A stretch of 34,965 nucleotides of DNA from the IMG/VR virus record IMGVR_UViG_3300044939_000015, positions 1-34,965 of that record, one strand, 5' to 3'. A model generated the notes under the pieces. That model was not told the origin of the DNA, searched no databases, and saw only the letters and a program-made list of their open reading frames with translations. The translations under genes and the position numbers were made by a program. The DNA is from a virus. Numbering within the stretch: the stretch's first letter is position 1; each line of letters starts with the position of its first letter. Shown here piece after piece: positions 2,545-34,965 of this stretch.

Positions 2545-5418
2545 CTAATTTAAATGGAGTTTATTAGTTGACAAAATAGGAGTTAGTTTCTTAGCTTCAG
2601 TAATACAATCAGCATTTGAAAGAGCTTCTGTATCAAAAATAAAACAATCCACTTCAACAGGCGGCAAGCCTGTTTTTTCTAACAGATTAGCTTTCTTAAT
2701 ACCCTTAAGCAGCTTTCTGTCTTTTAGCGCAGAAACTAGCCAGCCATACTCAATTTTATAGAAATTGCAGTAATCAATCAGAGCTTTCTTAGTTACATAA
2801 ACTTCATTAATTTGTTTACCAATACCTTGGTATCTAACTGCAATACTACGAGCATTGGGCGGAACCATAATCATGTTGGAAGAGCCATCATCACGTATAG
2901 TAGTTCCCAAATTTTCAAGCAAGAACTGATTGAGTACGTTGAGCGGATCGCCAAAGTTGTCTTTTATAGTAGTTCTAATAGACTTCATAGCGGCAACCGC
3001 CCATTCAAATATTGACTTAACATCGTAAGTATGCAAGCCAATACTCTTCGCAATCTCACCGCCAACCTTCATGGCAGCCAAAGACGCTAACCAAAATCGT
3101 TCAGCCGGTGCCGATTGATACTGCGCAGTAATCTCTTTCATTGCCTCATTCATACGACGGCGAACAGATACAAGATTGTCTACCAAATACTGAACGTAGA
3201 CTTTACCAGCAATACCATAGTTAGCGTCAAGAACGTTCTTTGCTTCATCTATTACTAATGCGTTACACGCTAACGCTGGACTAACTTCAAACTCTAAAAC
3301 CCGGTAAGCCTGTCCGTTATTTCCAGCGCGAATACGAGCTATTTTGGTATAGATGGACGTATTAGAACTACTAATTATAACAGTCTTCCAAGTAGTCTCG
3401 TTAGTTTTCGTAATACCAGAAATGTTAGCGCGTTCTTTACCACGTCCACCAGATATTTCGTACAACAAAGTGCCCAACGCCTCGGGGTCCATCTCGGTCA
3501 ACTCATCGAAAGTCACCGGAAGATTCCGCATAGCGCCGATCCGATTAAGCATCGGAATTCTGTTGTCATGCGTAAGAATCATCCGTTCGTTGGGTGTACC
3601 CCAAATACTAGTCGCAAACCGTTGGGCGGTGGACTTACCTCGACCAGAACCGCCATATAAGTTAACCAAAATGCCATTATATGGAGTGAACTCAATTAAT
3701 GGCGCTGCAAACCCCATAAGCGCGGCAGCGATCAACGGTTCAGAATTAGGTATTTCATTCAGACAACTAAAAGCTCGAATCCACTTTTCTAAATTTCCCG
3801 ACGACGAACTAGCCGCAGATTTAACGGGTAAAAGTACAGGACTGATGCTGGTATTCGGTGTCCACTGTCTGTCGTGGTAAACCATGTCGCCGAGGATAAA
3901 CTCTGCGACGTTTTCATTATTGATGTCTGGAAACCTCCAACCAAGCTGCGAGTAATTTTTGACGGCGGGCTTGCGTGCTTGTAGTTCCCTGACATAGTTA
4001 GTAAGGTACTTGAATAAGTACGGTGCAAAGGATCGCTCGGGTAGAATACCATAGTCAGCTAAAAATACTCCTAGTCTCTTATCGTCAGCCAATAAACTCA
4101 TTGGCATTTTAATGATGCGGTCACCATCGTGCGGAAACTTGACCAAAAACTCCACCATTTCTTGGCCTGTGTACTCATCCTTACACCGCCTATGGGGTAC
4201 AATCAAGAAGTCAAATATCCGCACAATAGCATCTGCTTTGTGCATAAATATCTGGCCGTCCTTTATAAAATACGGCTTTGGCGGTTCTACTTCGCCAAGG
4301 TCTTCTATTCTAGGCTTTTCAGTAGGAGAAGAGCTTAATATAAGCTGAACGTCCTCCTCGTCTGTATTCGCGATCTTTCGGCCAGCCGCTACAGGGCTGC
4401 CGACGAAGCCTCGTAGCGGGCATGTCCTGCATCGATCCGGGAACATACCGCCCAGGGTGTCACACGTTGCAGGCCCGATGCCGTTCTGGACTAGCTGGTC
4501 GATCTTTTTCAGCGTCCCGGCTAGGGTATAGCCGGGGTGCCCTTTTGAGAATGCTATCGCAGCTTCAGTGTCGCTATTTGGGTCAGTAATGAAAACAAAT
4601 CGAGCAACAGACAGGGCCGCATACCACTCCGGTTCAGAAGCGGTTTCTTTGTTATCAATATATTCTCTAATCCAGTTACAAGCTTTGACTACGTGATTTA
4701 TATGCACGCGGTCTTCTGCTTTAATAACTGAGTATTCCTTAGTCGGAACTGGGGTAGATGTAACTAGAGATTCGGAATCTTCTGACAGAAAAATGCGATG
4801 GTCTACTTCGCCATCAGCATCCTGCAATATAGACACCAGTTTAACTTGACCATGCTTATGATTAAGCGACCCCGGAAGACGTAGTAAAGCGGACTTATCT
4901 CGTGGACGCGATCCGTCGGCGACTAGTTTAGGCGCTATTTTAGATACGGTATTAAAGAACTCTGTAGCTACTTTAGTCCAAGTAGCCGGAGATAAGTGAG
5001 TGTCAAGCGGCCAGTAAATATGCAACCCCAAGCCTGAATCTACGATCCAAGGATTAGGCAGGTTTGCACTTTGACGTAGTTTTTCTAGCTCGCTTAGAGC
5101 TTCTTCATAAGAATGGCAATAGACCGGGCTATCTGGACGTATGTCTACATCCAGATATAGTGATTTAATATACTTTACGTTAGTATTCTTACGAAAGCCA
5201 TTATTAGCTGGCTTTTCTTCTACGTAAGATGATGGCGAAAAATAAAGTTCTCTGTTAGAGTTAGATTGAATTATAGAAGGAAGGAGTTTTCTAAGCTCAT
5301 CCATACCCTTAATCGGAATATGGACTAACTTTGATAGTCTTGATTTCCCGTCTTCTAGTTTTGCACTTGCAATGCAGTAAAGCCCATCGGGCGGTAAAAT
5401 AGATTCAAAAAAGTCCAT
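2545..5418 (-). CDS. Primase-helicase with AEP-like N terminus and DUF927-like ATPase
   Basis: This 957-residue protein fuses two replication activities. The N-terminal third resembles archaeo-eukaryotic (Prim-Pol) primases: a metal-binding D-x-D in LYLDVDIRPD (D90, D92), then SGLGLHIYW near residues 128-136 and a basic GSRPRDKSALLRLPGS segment. A Cys cluster (CDTLGG...CRTCPLRG, about residues 317-336) may bind zinc. The C-terminal half has Walker A GGSGRGKST near residue 590 and a Walker B-like LPVTFDELTEM, typical of the DUF927 helicase group. It would prime and unwind DNA at the phage fork. A stem-loop lies just before its start (see 5420-5440). Confidence 0.88.
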   Translation of the reverse strand: MDFFESILPPDGLYCIASAKLEDGKSRLSKLVHIPIKGMDELRKLLPSIIQSNSNRELYFSPSSYVEEKPANNGFRKNTNVKYIKSLYLDVDIRPDSPVYCHSYEEALSELEKLRQSANLPNPWIVDSGLGLHIYWPLDTHLSPATWTKVATEFFNTVSKIAPKLVADGSRPRDKSALLRLPGSLNHKHGQVKLVSILQDADGEVDHRIFLSEDSESLVTSTPVPTKEYSVIKAEDRVHINHVVKACNWIREYIDNKETASEPEWYAALSVARFVFITDPNSDTEAAIAFSKGHPGYTLAGTLKKIDQLVQNGIGPATCDTLGGMFPDRCRTCPLRGFVGSPVAAGRKIANTDEEDVQLILSSSPTEKPRIEDLGEVEPPKPYFIKDGQIFMHKADAIVRIFDFLIVPHRRCKDEYTGQEMVEFLVKFPHDGDRIIKMPMSLLADDKRLGVFLADYGILPERSFAPYLFKYLTNYVRELQARKPAVKNYSQLGWRFPDINNENVAEFILGDMVYHDRQWTPNTSISPVLLPVKSAASSSSGNLEKWIRAFSCLNEIPNSEPLIAAALMGFAAPLIEFTPYNGILVNLYGGSGRGKSTAQRFATSIWGTPNERMILTHDNRIPMLNRIGAMRNLPVTFDELTEMDPEALGTLLYEISGGRGKERANISGITKTNETTWKTVIISSSNTSIYTKIARIRAGNNGQAYRVLEFEVSPALACNALVIDEAKNVLDANYGIAGKVYVQYLVDNLVSVRRRMNEAMKEITAQYQSAPAERFWLASLAAMKVGGEIAKSIGLHTYDVKSIFEWAVAAMKSIRTTIKDNFGDPLNVLNQFLLENLGTTIRDDGSSNMIMVPPNARSIAVRYQGIGKQINEVYVTKKALIDYCNFYKIEYGWLVSALKDRKLLKGIKKANLLEKTGLPPVEVDCFIFDTEALSNADCITEAKKLTPILSTNKLHLN

Positions 5419-7112: not shown

Positions 7113-7419
7113 CGTTCTGTCCTCTCCCGAGCAGTTCGTTGAGTGTATCTGCCGCTTCCTGAAGGTTGCCTGAATGGATCACGAGGAAGGTGCCGCCAGA
7201 TTTCTTAATGTTGTCTGACTCTCGTTCCTGCATTTTCGTTAGTTTACTCGTCGGTTCAGCTTTTGTTTCAATTGCAATGAAATGACCATTGCAACATACT
7301 GTAAAATCTGGAATACCTGGTCTGCCCATGCCGGTCATATATGGCATATGATACCAAACATCATCACCATAACTATCGAGAAGCCTCTTTAATCTAGCTT
7401 TTACTGCACGCTCACTCAT
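7084..7419 (-). CDS. VRR-NUC domain nuclease
   Basis: This compact 111-residue protein has the PD-(D/E)XK signature of VRR-NUC nucleases: GRPGIPDF supplies the first Asp, and the FIAIETKA strand supplies the Glu-x-Lys. A helix with Gln/Glu follows (KLTKMQERESDN). Stand-alone VRR-NUC proteins are common in phages and are thought to cut branched or flap DNA. It lies next to a second PD-(D/E)XK gene and DNA polymerase, so a role in resolving replication or recombination intermediates is likely. The AGGAGG ribosome-binding site is strong. Confidence 0.88.
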   Translation of the reverse strand: MSERAVKARLKRLLDSYGDDVWYHMPYMTGMGRPGIPDFTVCCNGHFIAIETKAEPTSKLTKMQERESDNIKKSGGTFLVIHSGNLQEAADTLNELLGRGQNDGRLDASLD

Positions 7420-11234: not shown

Positions 11235-12851
11235 TTAAATCACCTCACTAAAGTTGTCAAAGAGATCAAACAATTCACGTTGTGCGGCTTCTTTTTTCTT
11301 CAGGGCATCGTATACTCTCCATTCAAGTGGATGGCATCCTACATTGTAGACCACAGTCTTGTCAACTTGACCTTTTCGGTGCATCCGTTTGTTAGCTTGG
11401 GCATAAGTCTCCTGGTTGTACACAGGGCTGTACCAGATTGTTGCTTTAGCGTTTACTAATGTAAGGCCATGACTTGCAACGTCCGGATGGCATACAAGGG
11501 CTTTGTACATGCCACCCCGAAACTCGTTGAAAATCCTAGCCCTCTCACCAGCACTGGTCGCACCGTAGACCGACGCTACTTCGTAGCCGCTACTGTGCAA
11601 CGCTTGGACCAGCAAAGGTATAGTAGCAACGAACGGTGCGAAGATCAATACCTGTCCCTGCACATCACCGACGATTTCTAGCACTGCGTTTAATCGAGGT
11701 TCAGGTAAGATAGTGATAGGGTCATTCGATCCGGTCGAAGACCGGACCGCTCCTGCTAAGATTTGCAGGAGCTTTGTGGCCCTGACCGCAGACGTAGTGG
11801 CCTTCGCCACCTTACCGTCACACTCGATCTGCAACTGATCGACCATCTCATTAAAGTATACACGCTGTTCTTTAGTCAATTCTGCGTGTCGATTAACATA
11901 CGTAATCTCTGGTAGATCAATGCAGTCTTCTGCGGCAAATCGAACCGCAGGAAACATAAACTTTTTTACTTCTTCAATCGCTTTTGGCTTAGGAACCCAC
12001 TTAAACGGCCCTTGTTTGTACATGAATGTATTAAGAAACGTTGCTTTGTTTCTCGCAACGCTCAAGTTAGGATACATCATATGCAAAAGTGGGTAAGCAT
12101 CTAGTAAACTATTAGCCATTGGCGTTCCTGTCATTATGACAGTACGCATCGGTTTTGATTTCCGTATAGCTGTTACAGCTTTGTAGATGTTAGTCCGTGT
12201 AGACTTAAAGTTCCTAGTTGCCTCATCAATCACGAGCATGTCGTACTTTTCTGCGATTAGTTTGTCTTTTAGTACGGCCAGCCCGTGATGATTTATGATA
12301 TGGACTTGTGCGTCTATTTGCAGTGCTTTTAGCTTAGCCTGCTTATCCCCAAACAAGTTAGCTATTCGGATATGCGGTGCAGCCAAGAAAAACTCTCGTG
12401 CCCATTCGGGTTGGACAGAAATAGGACTTGCTATTAGCGCTTTTTTGATTTTACCTACTTTGAGTAGATAGTCAATGGCCCAGATTACACACCGAGTTTT
12501 GCCAGTACCTGGGTCATTGAATATAAAAATGTCGTCGTAAAGCGTTATATAATCTGTTGTTATTTCTTGATGCTTCATGGGCTTGTCTGGACCTACAAAC
12601 GCCCATGATCCTTGTTGCCGTGCCAGAGCGCACGGCGTTGGAATAGACTGATATATCTGGGAATTCATGCCAAAAATGGCATGAAGTGTTGATACAGTAT
12701 CCCAAGAATAATCTATTGAACTTAGTTTTGGGTGGTGCTTCTCTAGTTTAAAGTGTTTACTAAGTGGATATAGCTTCTCAATATATTCTAGAGTTTCGGT
12801 ATGAAGCCATATCCTACCGTCAATGAAAACTGGGAGAATCGGGCAACTCAT
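11235..12851 (-). CDS. SNF2-like superfamily 2 helicase/ATPase
   Basis: The start is taken at the ATG giving MSCPILPVF. A TTG two codons earlier is possible. The 538-residue protein shows motif I DPGTGKT, motif II VIDEATRNF, motif III MTGTP, and in the second RecA-like lobe QVLIFAPF, VASHGLTLVNA and motif VI QANKRMHRKGQ, the SNF2-type order. It would use ATP to translocate on duplex DNA, perhaps remodelling forks or displacing proteins. Helicases of this type are common in phage replication modules. Several 7-8 bp perfect hairpins occur inside this gene too. Confidence 0.92.
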   Translation of the reverse strand: MSCPILPVFIDGRIWLHTETLEYIEKLYPLSKHFKLEKHHPKLSSIDYSWDTVSTLHAIFGMNSQIYQSIPTPCALARQQGSWAFVGPDKPMKHQEITTDYITLYDDIFIFNDPGTGKTRCVIWAIDYLLKVGKIKKALIASPISVQPEWAREFFLAAPHIRIANLFGDKQAKLKALQIDAQVHIINHHGLAVLKDKLIAEKYDMLVIDEATRNFKSTRTNIYKAVTAIRKSKPMRTVIMTGTPMANSLLDAYPLLHMMYPNLSVARNKATFLNTFMYKQGPFKWVPKPKAIEEVKKFMFPAVRFAAEDCIDLPEITYVNRHAELTKEQRVYFNEMVDQLQIECDGKVAKATTSAVRATKLLQILAGAVRSSTGSNDPITILPEPRLNAVLEIVGDVQGQVLIFAPFVATIPLLVQALHSSGYEVASVYGATSAGERARIFNEFRGGMYKALVCHPDVASHGLTLVNAKATIWYSPVYNQETYAQANKRMHRKGQVDKTVVYNVGCHPLEWRVYDALKKKEAAQRELFDLFDNFSEVI

Positions 12852-13149
12852 TACCAACTAGCTCCATTAACGCTATAGTTGCTAACCGACAGCTTTCAAG
12901 TATCTTCCGTATATCGTCTGAATCTAGCTGGATATTAAAAAGAGTCTTAGCTATCAGAAAGCCGTAAGCTATAGAAAACAAAAAAATGCATTCCTTTTGT
13001 AAATTAGCTTCTTTTTCACTTTCAGGTTTATATATAGCAGCAAGAGTGAAAGCTCTATGGCAAAAGTCAGCTAAGTCTTCCGCCGCTCCCTCTTTAAATT
13101 CCAACTCGTTATTAGAATTAATTTGAACGTATGTAGTTTCAGAATTCAT
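12820..13149 (-). CDS. Hypothetical helical protein (109 aa)
   Basis: The protein is mostly helical, with an acidic start and a hydrophobic segment (CIFLFSIAYGFLIAKTLF) that could be buried or weakly membrane-associated. Its 3' end overlaps the helicase start, so coupling is likely. The GAGAGAAGGA ribosome-binding sequence is very near the ATG. No family is recognised. Confidence 0.65.
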   Translation of the reverse strand: MNSETTYVQINSNNELEFKEGAAEDLADFCHRAFTLAAIYKPESEKEANLQKECIFLFSIAYGFLIAKTLFNIQLDSDDIRKILESCRLATIALMELVGNELPDSPSFH

Positions 13150-13519
13150 GTCCTTCTCTCTTAAGCGTCTGCCGCATAGATTCTATCACTTGTTCGTAAG
13201 ATATTACTTGTTTAATTTTATTTGTTAGCTGCCAATATCCTGGTCTGCCGTATGACCTAGCAACGGCCACCGCCAGGACCTCGGCAGCCTCCATCGGAGT
13301 TTGGCAGTCCGCGACTGAACGCGGACTTAACCACTCTGTGACTGGACGAACGATTTGCTCCATCGTTCTAGCATAGCCTATCCTAGCTAGTAGCCAAACT
13401 AATCTGGAAGGCTCTACGCATTTATCCCATGCTTCTTTAGATGATACTGATTCATCAGCGTCGTCCGCATAGGATCGGCATGCACCTAGCTTCTTAATCG
13501 CATCACTCCAATTGTTCAT
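13139..13519 (-). CDS. Hypothetical protein (126 aa)
   Basis: The start ATG overlaps the stop of the last array gene (ATGA). No Shine-Dalgarno site is evident, so translation probably depends on the array gene upstream. The sequence contains WDKCVEPSRLVWLLARIG and a helix-rich centre (PMEAAEVLAVAVARSYG). No catalytic motif is seen. A perfect 8-bp stem (AGTCCGCG...CGCGGACT) lies in its coding sequence near 13312-13333. Confidence 0.68.
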   Translation of the reverse strand: MNNWSDAIKKLGACRSYADDADESVSSKEAWDKCVEPSRLVWLLARIGYARTMEQIVRPVTEWLSPRSVADCQTPMEAAEVLAVAVARSYGRPGYWQLTNKIKQVISYEQVIESMRQTLKREGHEF

Positions 13520-13734
13520 AGTAAAGTACTAACACTAAAGAGCCTGTGATTTCCGACTACTGATCTAGAATAAATGTATGGATAACTAGAAGTACAGACT
13601 TCTCCCGTATATCTTTTTATTTTAACAAAATCGCCTGTTCTAATCACTGACTGACTATAAATATGTTGCAGTCTATGTATCTCTGATTTAATTATAAGAC
13701 CTGTTTTACTACGAATTCTAGAGTACGCTATCAT
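13516..13734 (-). CDS. Array protein 1: [S/T]-x-[I/V] repeat protein (72 aa)
   Basis: This is the last gene in transcription order of a seven-gene tandem array. Serine-led triplets recur as SRI (5-7), SEI (17-19), SVI (29-31), then a basic linker KIKRYTGEV and a Tyr/Ser-rich end (YPYIYSRSVV). The 12-residue period suggests a small beta-solenoid or stacked hairpins. An AGGA site lies seven bases before the ATG, and the stop overlaps the next gene's ATG, which supports real translation. No signal peptide or known domain is seen. Confidence 0.68.
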   Translation of the reverse strand: MIAYSRIRSKTGLIIKSEIHRLQHIYSQSVIRTGDFVKIKRYTGEVCTSSYPYIYSRSVVGNHRLFSVSTLL

Positions 13735-13735
13735 A

Positions 13736-13948
13736 CTACGGTCCTAAACATTCTGAAAAATAGTAAATATTATGTTTGTTTAAGATTCTTGAATAAGTGT
13801 AAACGTATGGAAACCTGCAAATTTCCGATAAATACTTTATTCGTCCAAACTTATTAGGACAGATTTTGCTTTGTATATAGCTACCGTAAAGGCTGCAAAT
13901 TATTGTTTTATTTACCAAGCCTTTACTTAAGTAAAGTTCAGATCGCAT
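13736..13948 (-). CDS. Array protein 2: [S/T]-x-[I/V] repeat protein (70 aa)
   Basis: The repeat triplets are SEL (3-5), TII (15-17), SKI (27-29), SEI (41-43) and SRI (53-55), a 12-12-14-12 spacing. Over the first 57 residues about half of the residues match array protein 3, including RIKYLSEI and FPYVYTYS. DNA differences between the two copies include several synonymous third-position changes (for example TCG/TCC, GTT/GTA, TAC/TAT), which argues for selection on protein. The upstream AAGAAGATATACAT resembles a phage leader with a modest Shine-Dalgarno site. Confidence 0.72.
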   Translation of the reverse strand: MRSELYLSKGLVNKTIICSLYGSYIQSKICPNKFGRIKYLSEICRFPYVYTYSRILNKHNIYYFSECLGP

Positions 13949-13965
13949 ATGTATATCTTCTTACT

Positions 13966-14172
13966 TTAACAAATCTGCCTTATGAAAATAGTAGACATTA
14001 CATTTGATACTGTAGAATGAGTATATACATCTGGAAACTTATGAATTTCGGATAAATATCTTATCCGCCAGCGTGCATTTAGACAAATTCTGCTTTGTGT
14101 ATGAATATGGCGAAAGCCACGAATTATTGTTCTACTGACTAAACCAAAATTTGAGTGGACTTCAGATCGCAT
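13966..14172 (-). CDS. Array protein 3: [S/T]-x-[I/V] repeat protein (68 aa)
   Basis: The ATG at 14172 (MRSEVHSNFGL) is chosen because it aligns with array protein 2. A TTG frame start 18 bases upstream is unlikely. Triplets SEV, TII, SRI, SEI and STV fall at residues 3, 15, 27, 41 and 53, identical in spacing to protein 2. The shared core RIRYLSEIxxFPxVYTxS is evident. The upstream gene ends TAG, one base before this ATG, and the ribosome-binding site is weak, so reinitiation is likely. Confidence 0.7.
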   Translation of the reverse strand: MRSEVHSNFGLVSRTIIRGFRHIHTQSRICLNARWRIRYLSEIHKFPDVYTHSTVSNVMSTIFIRQIC

Positions 14173-14173
14173 A

Positions 14174-14413
14174 CTAACAAAATCTCGCAATAACGCTACT
14201 AAAGTACACTTTATTGCCTTTTCTTATTGTTGATCGAACATTCAAATGTACGCCATTATAAACCTCTGTCTCTCTTACTCTGGACCTCTTTCCACTAAAA
14301 CTTTTCAGATTAACTCTAGATGATGTATAGACATATGGATTTACATAAATCTCTGTTTCACCCATCAGTCCTAAGTTTGTATATATTTCTGATCGTGAAT
14401 AATTAAGAAACAC
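14174..14413 (-). CDS. Array protein 4: [S/T]-x-[I/V] repeat protein (79 aa)
   Basis: Translation probably starts at GTG, with GGAG seven bases upstream inside the previous gene's end. Triplets SEI (8), TEI (20), SRV (32), SRV (44), TEV (49), STI (61) and a final SVI (73) give a 12-residue rhythm with one phase shift. Basic residues cluster in KSFSGKRSRVRE. The protein lacks cysteine-rich, catalytic or membrane motifs. It is the clearest example of the repeat in the array. Confidence 0.72.
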   Translation of the reverse strand: MFLNYSRSEIYTNLGLMGETEIYVNPYVYTSSRVNLKSFSGKRSRVRETEVYNGVHLNVRSTIRKGNKVYFSSVIARFC

Positions 14414-14416
14414 CGA

Positions 14417-14674
14417 TCATCTCCATACTTTTTCAATTCTAGATTTAAATATGTTAAATCCGGGCATAACCGTTTCTGCCCAACAACAGGGCTTATTAAC
14501 CACGGTCGATTTATACCGTGGCGCTCCTCCTTTCTTAGTAACTATCATAGATTTAGACCTTATAGCTTTCCCTTTAGTAATATAGTAGGAGTTAGTAATA
14601 AAATAATTTTTGTGCTGGACCTCAGCACTATAAAAGTATCTTAGCATAAACCTTGGAGCTGAAATTTTCCGCAT
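14417..14674 (-). CDS. Array protein 5: [S/T]-x-[Y/I/V] repeat protein (85 aa)
   Basis: The repeats here are longer (13-14 residues) and carry Lys/Gly turns: SYYITKGKA (29), SMIVTKKGGAP (42), STVVNKP (56). HKNYFITNSYY aligns with HKNKYYNFTESYY in array protein 6. The start codon is uncertain, because the GGGGT stretch is too close to the ATG at 14674 to be an ideal site. Two stems inside the gene (CCACGGT...ACCGTGG) lie near 14500-14521. Function is unknown. Confidence 0.6.
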   Translation of the reverse strand: MRKISAPRFMLRYFYSAEVQHKNYFITNSYYITKGKAIRSKSMIVTKKGGAPRYKSTVVNKPCCWAETVMPGFNIFKSRIEKVWR

Positions 14675-14680
14675 ACCCCG

Positions 14681-14863
14681 TCATTGTTGTCTCCGCAAAG
14701 AAACGGAGTTCATTCCGTTTTTTAATAACCATATATGACGTATATCTGGGGCTCCTCCTTTTGTAGTGTAATAAGATTCAGTAAAGTTGTAATACTTATT
14801 TTTATGTCTGATTTCAGTCTCAGTAAAAAACTTAACTACTGATCTTTGTCTTAGTTTCAACAT
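14681..14863 (-). CDS. Array protein 6: repeat protein (60 aa)
   Basis: The ATG giving MLKLRQRSVVKFF is preferred. An ATG four codons upstream exists. The product shares TEIRHKN, ESYYTTKGGAP and a basic end with array protein 5, so the two are probably duplicates. The start lies inside the 3' end of array gene 7 in another frame. No strong ribosome-binding site is visible, and coding status is less sure than for proteins 1-4. Confidence 0.55.
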   Translation of the reverse strand: MLKLRQRSVVKFFTETEIRHKNKYYNFTESYYTTKGGAPDIRHIWLLKNGMNSVSLRRQQ

Positions 14864-15071
14864 AACTAGAACCATATAACATATAGGTGCCTGACTTTTG
14901 CGCGTAGGTACTATGCAAAAATGTTTTGTTTTTTCCAGATTTTATTTCAGAGCAAATAAATTGCCCTACATTTGATTCTAACAGAGTTGTTTTATCTTTG
15001 TAAACTAGCACTGAATGTGTGGCGTATTTTCCCACAAACGAGTGTTGAAGAGTGCGAGTTAAAGTATTCAT
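14832..15071 (-). CDS. Array protein 7: repeat protein (79 aa)
   Basis: This is the first gene of the array in transcription order, right after the tRNA genes. Serine-led triplets occur as SVL (20), SNV (33), SEI (41), STY (54) and SSY (68), each followed by Lys/Gly turns (KSGKNK, QKSGTY). The ribosome-binding site TTTGGA is modest. It overlaps array gene 6 by about 32 bases. Similarity to proteins 1-4 is only in the repeat rhythm, so membership in the family is inference. Confidence 0.58.
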   Translation of the reverse strand: MNTLTRTLQHSFVGKYATHSVLVYKDKTTLLESNVGQFICSEIKSGKNKTFLHSTYAQKSGTYMLYGSSYVETKTKISS

Positions 15072-15101: not shown

Positions 15102-15186
15102 TGGTGGGGCTGGAGGGACTCGAACCCTCATGGCGTTAGCCGGCGGATTTTAAGTCCGCTGTGTCTACCAGTTGCACCACAACCCC
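15102..15186 (-). tRNA. tRNA-Leu (anticodon UAA)
   Basis: The minus strand folds as a type II tRNA. Acceptor GGGGTTG pairs with CAGCCCC, the anticodon stem GCGGA/TCCGC holds loop CTTAAAA with anticodon TAA, a long variable arm (GGC-TAAC-GCC) follows, and the T arm is GAGGG-TTCGAGT-CCCTC. The 3' CCA is encoded after discriminator A. Leucine identity fits the long variable arm. Confidence 0.93.
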
Positions 15187-15191
15187 TATTA

Positions 15192-15267
15192 TGGTGGGCC
15201 TGCTCGGATTCGAACCGAGAACCAACCGCTTATGAGGCGGCTGCTCTAACCTTTAAGCTACAGGCCC
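15192..15267 (-). tRNA. tRNA with CAU anticodon (Met or Ile2)
   Basis: This 76-base minus-strand tRNA has acceptor GGGCCTG/CAGGCCC, anticodon loop CTCATAA (CAU), T arm CTCGG-TTCGAAT-CCGAG and an encoded CCA. The stretch around GCAG-CCGC-CTCATAA resembles bacterial tRNA-Ile2, in which C34 is changed to lysidine so that AUA is read. Elongator Met remains possible because the anticodon alone cannot decide. It precedes tRNA-Leu by five bases, so the two are processed from one transcript. Confidence 0.92.
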
Positions 15268-15278
15268 ATTAATCGCAA

Positions 15279-16406
15279 TCAAGTTCGGCAACGTACAACG
15301 TCGCCAAACGGGTACTCGACAGTACCCGACAAGTCTACCCAGACCAGCGGGTATGATGGCGGAGTGCTTGGAAACACACCGTAACCGTCAGTAATGTACA
15401 GAACCACATCTGGCGAATGTGATCCCATACGCTCAAGAGCTTCGCAGAAGCTAGTACCGCCACCTCCACGAAACTCCATAGGAGAATCCAGCATACTGGA
15501 AGGCGTAGTCTCTTCTTCATAAGCCACTCTGATATCTGCATCCATGCGATGCACAGTCCGCACGCAGACTTGTGTCAGAATATCTTTGATTACCCCGACG
15601 ACTCTGCTGAAAAACTCGTCCATCGAAGCACTGGTGTCGAAGATAACTCCGACCTTCTCGATGCCCGGACAGTTCAACGTCGGCGAAATGACGCCGCTAA
15701 CCCCATAACTAACTACAGCCATTTTCTTTAGGCTATAATCAGTTGGCGATAGAGCGTTTAGATATTGACTAAGTTCCGACGCCCAATCGTGGGGCGGAAC
15801 CCAGGCCGATTCTACCGCTTTAACTAACTCTTGGGGAATACTCCCAGGAGGGGCGGCAGTAACAACCGACTGCACCGCCATCCGCAGGTCTTGAACCTCC
15901 TGGGAAGACAGCGGATTTGTTTCAGATTCCCGACCACAATCGGTCAGGACTGAGTTCTGCACAATGCTCTCAAGGGCGTCCTTGTCCTGATTCTGAACGA
16001 GCCAGTTATATACTCGTTCGCTAGTCCATTCATGGGGGTTGTACCCCATGTCAGGAAACTTCGATGCCGTGATAATCTTATCCGGCATCGAAAAAGTAAA
16101 CTGGTTACTGAACAAGAACTCGTTAATAACGAGATCTTGTGCCACATTGAACGTGCGCGGATTCCGACCTTTTGTTCTTCCAAAAAAATCATAACCCAAA
16201 TGCAGTGCTTCGTGCGCAAGCACAAACACTTGCGAATCTACATCCAAACTGCTCCAGAAATCTGGATTAACCAAGATTTGCCGCCCATTCGTGGCGGCAG
16301 TGGGAATCGAACGATCCTCCTTAATCGGGAGGATCTTAGCGAACCCATAAATTACTGGGTTCATCTTGAAAAGACGCATCAACGCCTTGGAGTATTTGCT
16401 AAACAT
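15279..16406 (-). CDS. HExxH metallopeptidase-like / VWA domain protein
   Basis: The 375-residue protein combines two parts. Residues 1-130 include LAHEALHLGYD (HExxH at 65-69) and AQDLVINEF (D91, E96), the metallopeptidase-like N-terminal domain of the DUF2201 group. The C-terminal part is a VWA domain with a complete MIDAS: DTSAS at 257-261, GGGGTSF near 320 and ITDGYG near 344. Such proteins work with MoxR AAA+ ATPases in metal-dependent protein remodelling, and a MoxR gene lies about 0.6 kb upstream. A strong GAGGAG site and a one-base overlap (TAATG) with the preceding frame support the start. The coding sequence carries many perfect hairpins, notably a 10-bp stem at 16060-16092. Confidence 0.88.
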   Translation of the reverse strand: MFSKYSKALMRLFKMNPVIYGFAKILPIKEDRSIPTAATNGRQILVNPDFWSSLDVDSQVFVLAHEALHLGYDFFGRTKGRNPRTFNVAQDLVINEFLFSNQFTFSMPDKIITASKFPDMGYNPHEWTSERVYNWLVQNQDKDALESIVQNSVLTDCGRESETNPLSSQEVQDLRMAVQSVVTAAPPGSIPQELVKAVESAWVPPHDWASELSQYLNALSPTDYSLKKMAVVSYGVSGVISPTLNCPGIEKVGVIFDTSASMDEFFSRVVGVIKDILTQVCVRTVHRMDADIRVAYEEETTPSSMLDSPMEFRGGGGTSFCEALERMGSHSPDVVLYITDGYGVFPSTPPSYPLVWVDLSGTVEYPFGDVVRCRT

Positions 16407-16606: not shown

Positions 16607-16620
16607 CCATTTCATCCCAC

Positions 16621-16651
16621 AAAAGTCGGGCACCGTGCAACGGTGCCCGAC
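16621..16651 (-). terminator. Intrinsic terminator between MoxR-side genes and VWA gene
   Basis: On the minus strand GTCGGGCACCGT and ACGGTGCCCGAC form a perfect 12-bp stem with a three-base loop (16625-16651), followed by TTTT at 16624-16621. The short U-tract suggests partial termination, which would make the VWA protein less abundant than the ATPase. Confidence 0.82.
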
Positions 16652-16664
16652 TCGATTGACCAGA

Positions 16665-17012
16665 TCAAGCCCTAGTAATGGGCTTGTCTGGCAACTCATG
16701 CGGGAACTCCCGCCATCCAGTGATGGAGGAGTAACGAACCGCATAAAATGCGGTTGCGAAGGGGTATACTTCGTGCAACGCCGCTGTGCCCTTTTGGGCG
16801 ATGTCAGTGACAACGCCCATCTGCACAACCATGCTAACTTTATCCAAAATCCAAAATTCTCCATCCTTGGACCTACCACGGAACCGACCGATAAAGAAAA
16901 ACCTATCGGTGTCGACCCAAATTGAAGTGCCGATTTCAGGATCACCGATATTAAGGGCGGGCAGGTTGGTGTCGTTAGTGGTGGTAGTGTCGTCGATGTT
17001 GATGCCAAACAT
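16665..17012 (-). CDS. Hypothetical protein between MoxR and VWA genes (115 aa)
   Basis: The ATG is preceded by GAGGAG at seven bases. The product begins MFGINIDDTTTTND and is beta-rich with several aromatic residues (RFFFIGRFRGRSKDGEFWIL, then FATAFYAVRYSS). It has no known motif. Its position between the two partners of a MoxR-VWA system suggests it is a third member of that complex, which is inference. A longer open frame (16406-17008) covers the same DNA but is a shadow. The DNA contains the perfect stems AACCGCAT/ATGCGGTT and GCGGGA/TCCCGC. Confidence 0.72.
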   Translation of the reverse strand: MFGINIDDTTTTNDTNLPALNIGDPEIGTSIWVDTDRFFFIGRFRGRSKDGEFWILDKVSMVVQMGVVTDIAQKGTAALHEVYPFATAFYAVRYSSITGWREFPHELPDKPITRA

Positions 17013-19545: not shown

Positions 19546-20000
19546 TAATATATATTTAATATATATAAGGAGATGTGTCTCAGTAGGTATAGGGCTTTCC
19601 TATAGTGTGTTCCCCGGGGAATCTATTACAAAATTTCAGCGCGCTGTCCGTTCAGATTCGGGCGTGGACTTATGCGGCCTCCAGGCCCGCCGTTCAGATT
19701 CGGTGAACTTCGATAAGTATTACTGAACTGTAATTAAACAGTAATAAATATTACTGGCTAGTAAAATCAATGACTTACGCGCGTCATCATGTAATGAAAA
19801 CGAATCGTTAACGTTACTTTTACTTCGCTGAACATACTCTGAAATCTAGCAAAAATGCGGGCTAAATCCGTTACATTTCAGTCTTTTTTGAACGATCCGA
19901 ACGTTAATGTAATGTATACGTCAAAATTTGACCAAATTTCACGCGGTTTTCACTAACTTCTTCACATTACCTTAACATTCGGGCTTAAAGACAAATTACC

Positions 20001-20152
20001 GTCGTATAGTCCCGTAAATAAGGAGAAACTAGTAGTATTTCCCGTGGGCGTCTAGGTTTAAATCGTAATATTATCACGCGGGGTTTTTGTTGCCTATTTG
20101 CCGTATAGTCTCGCAAATAGGTACTATTCGCCGTATAGTCTCGCAAATAAGG
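20001..20152. repeat. Three copies of a CCGTATAGTC-type element
   Basis: Copies at 20001-20023, 20100-20121 and 20130-20152 follow the consensus CCGTATAGTCTCGCAAATA then AGG. The second copy is flanked by CCTATTTGC and GCAAATAGG, a perfect 9-bp stem with an 11-base loop holding CGTATAGTC. The conserved loop and variable stem suggest recognition sites, perhaps of a replication initiator or regulator. Confidence 0.65.
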
Positions 20153-20165
20153 CATTCTAGAGCGT

Positions 20166-20197
20166 AAAAAATAATAAAGCCTCGAATATTCGAGGCT
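20166..20197 (-). terminator. Palindromic terminator, leftward
   Basis: AGCCTCGAATATTCGAGGCT (20178-20197) is a perfect palindrome. On the minus strand it is followed by TTATTATTTTTT (20177-20166), a good intrinsic terminator. It would stop leftward transcription arising from the rightward gene side and insulate the control region. Confidence 0.65.
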
Positions 20198-20271
20198 CGG
20201 CTGAACGAAAAATAAACGGCGAAGTGCAAGGTTCTGCATATTCAGGTTTTGTTCAGCATTGTTGTGCTACT

Positions 20272-34514: not shown

Positions 34515-34965
34515 TGAGCGTCTCTCAAAAAGGCATTATTTACGACCCTAATACCGGTGGAGGTGGCCCTCCAGGCCCACAAGGTCCACAAGGCCCGCAA
34601 GGTCCGGCTGGTCCGCCTGGACCACAAGGCCCGCAAGGTCCGGCTGGTCCGCCCGGACCGCAAGGTCCTGCTGGACCGCCTGGCCCTGCTGGCCCCTCAA
34701 ACATCATCACCGAATCGAGCGGGCCCACTAATCTGAGCGTGGGCGCGATTGCCGATGGCGAATATCTGCGCCGCGTTGGCACGACGGTGGTCGGCGCGTC
34801 GATTACGGGTGGCGGATCACCTGCCGGGACCAACTCGGAAGTTCAGTATCGCGTCGATTCATCGACTTTCGGCGCAGCGCCTTTGCGGCGCGGTGGCGCC
34901 AACACGATGGAGCAGCACAACGGCACGAACGCGCAGATTCAAGATTGGTATCGCACGCGGATAGA
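34514..34965 (+). CDS. Collagen-like fibre protein (partial, cut by window edge)
   Basis: After a short N terminus ([14 protein letters not shown]) come about 15 Gly-Pro-X triplets (GPP, GPQ, GPA, roughly residues 19-64), as in the collagen-like shafts of phage tail fibres. A region with [13 protein letters not shown] follows, similar to phage tail-fibre baseplate-contact segments. The frame is open to the end of the window. From about 34,690 codon use becomes GC-rich, unlike the preceding genes, which suggests that the fibre body was exchanged by horizontal transfer. Confidence 0.87.

What the first reader, a model, noticed from the sequence alone, without database searches (positions are those of the whole stretch)
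13516..15071. Tandem array of seven small proteins with a 12-14 residue [S/T]-x-[I/V] repeat
Seven consecutive minus-strand frames encode 60-85 residue proteins whose serine/threonine-led triplets recur at a regular spacing (12-12-14-12 in copies 2 and 3; 12-12-12 and 12-12 runs in copy 4). Copies 2 and 3 are about half identical over 57 residues and differ by several synonymous third-position changes. Frames are packed with 1-17 base gaps, two have clear ribosome-binding sites (AGGA, GGAG), and the last stop overlaps the next gene. I know no family with this design. A 12-residue period is what small beta-solenoids (for example insect antifreeze folds) use, so a set of mini-solenoids diversified by duplication is a testable idea.
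Basis: partly seen in the sequence, partly recalled or inferred. Interest (0 to 1): 0.85.

Follow-up and report, generated by a model that had tools for sequence, protein, structure and literature searches.

The report
Fast-changing phage mini-protein gene array
A phage carries seven small, positively charged, serine-rich genes in a row, which look like real protein genes, several copied from one another, and which its closest relatives replace with different ones, as one expects of gene sets used in the contest with bacterial hosts, although what they do is not known.

Summary
Seven small minus-strand ORFs fill 13516-15071. Four of them (13516-14413) are paralogues with [S/T]-x-[I/V] every 12 residues (12 pairs against 0.4 expected); two more are paralogues of each other without that period; the seventh stands alone. 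Substitution patterns support translated proteins, and no RNA structure was found.

The array lies between two tRNA genes plus a DUF2201/VWA gene on one side and a conserved gene of about 125 aa plus an SNF2 helicase on the other. In two related phage lineages (flanking genes 54-72% identical) the same interval again holds 6-7 small, serine- and arginine-rich ORFs among tRNAs, almost unrelated in sequence. One of those phages has a second array of about 15 tandem small ORFs with start-stop overlaps and broken copies.

My reading: a birth-and-death family of small basic beta-strand proteins, most likely host-takeover or counter-defence effectors; that function is inferred. The mini-solenoid idea is not supported: AlphaFold confidence is low (pLDDT about 59), and six strands with tight turns point to an antiparallel meander. 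No match in Pfam, PHROGs, PADLOC, PDB sequences or 50,697 phage records.

The parts
14832..15071 (-). small ORF c1 (79 aa), first of the array; S/T 28%, not clearly homologous to the others
14681..14875 (-). small ORF c2 (64 aa at longest; a later in-frame start is possible), paralogue of c3, TKGGAP motif
14417..14674 (-). small ORF c3 (85 aa), paralogue of c2, TKKGGAP motif
14174..14413 (-). small ORF c4 (79 aa, GTG start preceded by GGAG); best 12-residue [ST]x[IV] periodicity (12-12-12, 12-12)
13966..14190 (-). small ORF c5 (74 aa at longest; ATG at 14172 is the start that aligns with c6)
13736..13948 (-). small ORF c6 (70 aa), 45% identical to c5; dN/dS 0.33
13516..13734 (-). small ORF c7 (72 aa, AGGA upstream); stop overlaps the next gene's ATG
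15102..15186 (-). tRNA-Leu (UAA), immediately upstream of the array
15192..15267 (-). tRNA with CAU anticodon called tRNA-Met (possibly tRNA-Ile2 by its resemblance, inference from memory)
15279..16406 (-). conserved upstream flank: DUF2201 metallopeptidase-like + VWA-like protein (54-55% identical in the relatives)
13139..13519 (-). conserved downstream flank: 126-aa protein, 60-61% identical in the relatives, no family match
11235..12857 (-). conserved downstream flank: SNF2-type DNA helicase (70-72% identical in the relatives)

Best explanation
The array is a tandem, birth-and-death set of real small proteins (64-85 aa; basic; rich in Ser, Arg, Ile, Val and Tyr; poor in Ala, Asp and Pro). 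They are probably small antiparallel beta-sheets in which, for four copies, each 12-residue unit is one strand plus a tight turn. The genes lie on the replication-gene strand of a phage, probably within one operon (DUF2201/VWA gene, tRNAs, array, 126-aa gene, helicase). Copies duplicate, diverge, break and are lost fast enough that relatives keep the slot but not the sequences. The most likely role, which is inferred, is a set of separately targeted early or middle binders (host-takeover or counter-defence proteins) whose copy number and diversity are the adaptive feature. Shown: coding signal, duplication, conserved slot, lineage-specific content. Inferred: operon, fold topology, expression time and function.
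For: Coding: dN/dS 0.33 for c5/c6; amino-acid identity above neutral expectation in five paralogue pairs (P from below 0.001 to 0.04); zero stops where 3-5 are expected. No RNA structure (mean z -0.5 and -0.3 on the two strands); no Rfam family but tRNA above its gathering score. Duplication: phmmer c5/c6 1e-15, c6/c7 1e-8, c2/c3 1e-7. Conserved slot: L002/L003 and L008 keep DUF2201 gene, tRNAs, small ORFs, the ~124-aa gene and the helicase in order. Shared style: Ser 11.5-13.1% against 7.2% in large window proteins; [ST]x[IV] 4.4-6.7 per 100 aa against 1.7; mostly high pI. Turnover: a second array of about 15 ORFs in L008's phage at L095:763-4459, with ATGA overlaps, a frame-broken copy at 2386-2600 and a C-terminal remnant at 3302; a 60-nt inverted repeat in the equivalent array of L002. 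Beta structure: six strands in both AlphaFold models.
Against: AlphaFold confidence is low, so the fold is weak evidence. Sequence links between arrays of different phages are marginal: d5/b6 and d4/c6 each have P about 3e-4 for one pair among 133 cross-phage pairs, and the profile comparison of the second array with c4-c7 is null. So 'one family' across phages rests on position and style more than on homology. Nothing tested bears directly on function. c1 is not shown to be related to the rest. Only three relative contigs (two lineages) were available. The broken copies that show turnover lie in a relative, in a different locus, and not in the window.
Confidence: 0.5

Rival explanations
1. 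Mini beta-solenoids: each 12-residue repeat is one coil with a Ser/Thr ladder, as in insect antifreeze folds, possibly acting as a surface binder.
For: 12-residue spacing of [ST]x[IV] in c4-c7; self-similarity peak at shift 12 in c4 and c6.
Against: AlphaFold gives strands of mostly 8-11 residues with short turns, so a 12-residue unit holds one strand and not a closed coil. No fold match is significant. No Cys ladder. The period is absent in the related arrays.
Confidence: 0.1
2. Nucleic-acid- or tRNA-associated accessory proteins: the basic small proteins act with the neighbouring phage tRNAs, or on phage or host RNA, and stay beside the tRNA genes for that reason.
For: In all three lineages the small ORFs sit among or directly after tRNA genes. 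pI is mostly above 9. AGA, TTA and AAA codons are enriched in the window array.
Against: The largest array (L095:763-4459) has no tRNA near it. tRNA clusters of three other phages show no such ORFs. The codon bias may simply follow the lower G+C (33% against 45%).
Confidence: 0.17
3. A decaying or noncoding spacer region between tRNAs and the next gene whose open frames are relics of duplicated DNA.
For: Low G+C; broken copies in a relative; no clear orthologue between relatives.
Against: Seven intact frames in 33%-GC DNA, protein-level constraint between paralogues, a stop-start overlap with the next gene, and some SD sites.
Confidence: 0.1
4. Structured noncoding RNA or a cis-element on either strand.
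For: Position beside tRNAs only.
Against: Fold z-scores of about -0.5 and -0.3, weaker than in neighbouring genes; no Rfam family apart from the tRNAs reaches its gathering score; constraint is in the reading frame.
Confidence: 0.03

Closest known systems
Phage host-takeover or accessory early-gene clusters (for example the SPO1 host-takeover module, T4 small early genes; from memory)
   Same: Runs of small, closely packed, poorly conserved genes of unknown function on the early/replication strand.
   Different: Here most of the genes are tandem paralogues with a shared composition and, in four, a repeat design, in a slot anchored by tRNAs; expression time and effect on the host are untested.
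Anti-CRISPR / anti-defence gene islands (from memory)
   Same: Small, fast-evolving, largely unrelated proteins occupying a conserved genomic slot.
   Different: No match to known families, no functional test; PADLOC holds mainly defence systems rather than inhibitors, so its silence says little.
Insect hyperactive antifreeze proteins (Tenebrio 12-residue beta-helix; fold from memory, papers PMC8038014 and PMC5991737 seen by title and abstract only)
   Same: 12-residue period with Ser/Thr positions.
   Different: No Cys ladder, predicted as hairpin-like strands, basic and Tyr/Arg rich; no sequence match.
Interval from the DUF2201 gene to the helicase in IMG/VR contigs L002/L003 and L008
   Same: Same flanking genes, tRNAs, 6-7 small S/R-rich ORFs.
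   Different: Different ORFs; 12-residue period absent; L008's phage has an additional array of about 15 ORFs upstream of the AAA ATPase gene.

Membership tests
Tandem paralogous protein-coding array | Neighbouring copies homologous to each other | tested here: met
   c4-c7 and c2-c3 by phmmer; c1 not shown
Tandem paralogous protein-coding array | Protein-level purifying selection | tested here: met
   dN/dS and neutral simulations; dS partly saturated
Beta-solenoid (antifreeze-like) | Regular repeat with one coil per unit in a confident model | tested here: inconclusive
   models show long strands with tight turns, which speaks against it, but pLDDT is only about 59
Insect antifreeze protein family | TCT / Cys-ladder 12-mer and sequence match | tested here: not met
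   no Cys ladder in the sequences; no Pfam match and no significant PDB sequence match (best E 0.034 to an unrelated chain)
Host-takeover / counter-defence effectors | Small early genes that act on host targets | not testable with these tools
   position and turnover only; no function assay
Host-takeover / counter-defence effectors | Hypervariable content in a conserved slot among relatives | tested here: met
   window, L002/L003, L008
Known phage protein families (PHROGs, Pfam, PADLOC) | Significant profile match | tested here: not met
   best PHROG E 0.008 for c2, not significant over the set scanned

The most novel reading that the evidence does not exclude
A previously undescribed system in which a phage group keeps one or two dedicated loci that generate sets of small basic single-sheet proteins by tandem duplication and fast divergence, each set lineage-specific, as a renewable repertoire of binders against host targets.
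Probability: 0.3. Interest if true: 0.75.

Novelty: new variant of a known kind. Interest (0 to 1): 0.5.

Why it matters
If each copy binds a different host factor, the arrays would be a readable record of a phage lineage's contest with its hosts and a compact source of new inhibitors. They also offer a test of how new small protein genes are born: in a related phage, copies at several stages (intact, overlapping, frame-broken, C-terminal remnant) lie side by side, and a 12-residue strand-turn unit may show a simple way to build a small beta protein.

Tried and rejected
Near and distant DNA searches of phages and of plasmids: only the tRNAs matched. tblastn of single and concatenated array proteins: nothing, or a hit at E 6. 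Pattern-based scans of viral contigs with c5/c6, c2/c3 and c4: no relatives. A3 profile against 20 related records: nothing.

The idea that such ORFs are usual in phage tRNA clusters: not seen in avDM6, F336 or FBKp24. Structured RNA: rejected. Homology of the window array with the second array in L008's phage: null profile comparison, so not claimed. Foldseek against viral and PDB libraries: no significant match, as expected for low-confidence models. A genome-contig scan with the helicase found no relative in prokaryote genomes. Paper searches found no description of such arrays; the terms were narrow, so this is weak evidence.

Full report
WHAT WAS CHECKED. The window is an IMG/VR virus record of 34,965 bases. 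It carries a head-tail connector/portal match (phrog_332), terminase subunits, DNA polymerase (phrog_17), a primase/helicase match, a ligase and an SNF2-type helicase, plus an AAA ATPase and a DUF2201/VWA protein. Relatives of the DUF2201/VWA protein occur in N4-like phages among others. So the finding lies in a phage, on the strand of the replication genes.

THE OBSERVATION. Seven small ORFs run on the minus strand from 15071 to 13516. In c4-c7 the triplet [ST]x[IV] recurs at 12 residues: c5 has 12-12-14-12, c4 has 12-12-12 and then 12-12, c7 has 12-12, and c6 has the c5 pattern if its first triplet, SEL, is allowed. In all there are 12 pairs at distance 12 against 0.37 expected, none of 5000 shuffles reaching it. 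Paralogy makes the four proteins non-independent, but c4 alone is significant (P = 2e-5 with motif number fixed). In about 954 kb of six-frame translation from this and related records, c4 and c5 have the highest counts and c6 and c7 share the next value with one other frame. c1-c3 do not show a strict run.

ARE THEY GENES? c5/c6: dN 0.41, dS 1.24, ratio 0.33. Scattering the observed nucleotide changes at random gives 22 identical residues on average against 30 seen (P = 0.004) and 3.5 stops against none (P = 0.02). Four more pairs (c6/c7, c4/c5, c5/c7, c2/c3) also exceed neutral expectation, c4/c5 only at P = 0.04. dS is near saturation and the alignments are protein-guided, so the ratio is approximate. 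Folding energy is close to shuffled sequence on both strands (mean z -0.54 and -0.25), while neighbouring coding DNA has stronger structure. Rfam finds only the tRNAs above threshold. I conclude that the frames are most likely translated genes; direct evidence is lacking.

DUPLICATION. phmmer groups c4-c7 (best 1e-15, weakest about 1e-3) and c2-c3 (1e-7). c1 is not placed.

SURROUNDINGS AND RELATIVES. Upstream lie tRNA-Leu(UAA), a tRNA with CAU anticodon and the DUF2201/VWA gene; downstream a 126-aa gene, a 109-aa gene and the helicase. Scans of viral contigs found three related contigs: L002 and L003 (nearly identical to each other in this region) and L008. Flanking proteins are 54-72% identical to the window's. 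All keep the slot between the DUF2201 gene and the ~124-aa gene. In L002/L003 it holds four tRNAs and small ORFs b1-b7 around a 161-aa gene; in L008 two tRNAs and d1-d6. These ORFs share a style with c1-c7: Ser 11.5-12.2%, Arg 7.5-9.7%, [ST]x[IV] 4.4-6.7 per 100 aa against 1.7 in large proteins of the window, mostly high pI. Yet only two cross-phage pairs are suggestive, d5/b6 and d4/c6, each about 3e-4 for a single pair among 133 tested. d4 also overlaps an 81-aa ORF in another frame, so its extent is uncertain. The 12-residue period is not shared.

A SECOND ARRAY. Reading more of the L008 record showed about 15 further tandem small ORFs at L095:763-4459 (record about 40.8-44.5 kb), upstream of the AAA ATPase gene. 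Several start within the stop of the previous one (ATGA). Nine were aligned: they begin MK, usually MK[LIYM], and most end with a motif close to RSW[VI]...D...G.L.E[IS]S, with a variable middle. Pairs e9/e12, e9/e10, e10/e12 and e10/e11 again show protein-level constraint (P <= 0.006). One copy is broken by a frame change (2386-2600) and another survives only as a C-terminal piece (3302 on). A profile comparison with c4-c7 finds no homology. A scan with strict composition rules finds clusters of at least three such ORFs only in the window and in this record among 99 loci; the L002-type array falls below those rules, so the scan is conservative. No tRNA lies near the second array.

STRUCTURE. 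Two AlphaFold jobs (c4 and c6, four-row alignments) gave pLDDT 58.6 and 59.5 with six beta strands in each; in c6 these are 2-7, 10-18, 22-32, 35-45, 48-57 and 61-68. Strand starts mostly 12-13 apart with 2-3-residue turns suit a hairpin meander, and the [ST]x[IV] triplet falls in strand regions. The output gives secondary structure only, so the antiparallel topology is inferred from geometry. The models are weak, and Foldseek gives nothing significant in viral or PDB libraries.

WHAT IT MOST LIKELY IS. A tandem set of small basic beta proteins that turns over quickly in a fixed slot of one phage group. Shown: coding signal, duplication, slot conservation, lineage-specific content, broken copies in a relative. 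Inferred: one operon with the tRNAs, early or middle expression, meander fold, and function as host-directed effectors. The effector reading follows from the pattern (small, unrelated between relatives, duplicated) and not from any test. The main rival with some support is a nucleic-acid- or tRNA-linked role, weakened by the tRNA-free second array and by three unrelated phage tRNA clusters without such ORFs.

NOVELTY. No significant match to Pfam, PHROGs, PADLOC, PDB sequences, phage records or plasmids, and no paper found in the held library. Clusters of small fast-changing phage genes are a known kind (from memory); the tandem design with a 12-residue unit and a fixed, renewable slot is a variant I could not find described.

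Noticed in passing
L095:763-4459 (record IMGVR_UViG_3300048597_000042, about 40763-44459): Second, larger tandem array of about 15 small ORFs with start-stop overlaps, shared N- and C-terminal motifs, one frame-broken copy and one C-terminal remnant.
   Followed up: yes
L002:7007-7066 and 7277-7336: 60-nt inverted repeat, 98% complementary, flanking 210 nt inside the small-ORF region; looks like a recent inverted duplication or an invertible segment.
   Followed up: partly
window 16617-16655, - strand: Strong GC hairpin (gggcaccgttgcacggtgccc) followed by a short T run, just downstream of the 115-aa ORF at 16665-17012; the fold window starting at 16620 has z about -9. Probably an intrinsic terminator, not caught by the pattern scan.
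   Followed up: partly
window 19985-20239: Direct repeats of about 26 nt giving the peptide YLRDYTAN and close variants, in an otherwise gene-poor stretch at about the place where L008's phage has its second array.
   Followed up: partly
window 15192-15267: tRNA called Met(CAT) resembles bacterial tRNA-Ile2 (AUA-reading) more than elongator Met (from memory); ATA and TTA codons are somewhat more frequent in the array, which may just reflect its low G+C.
   Followed up: partly
window 34573-34692: Tandem 9/18/27/36-nt GC-rich repeats near the end of the contig; collagen-like Gly-Pro repeats suspected.
   Followed up: no
window 13516-15071: G+C of the array is 33% against 45% for the window.
   Followed up: yes
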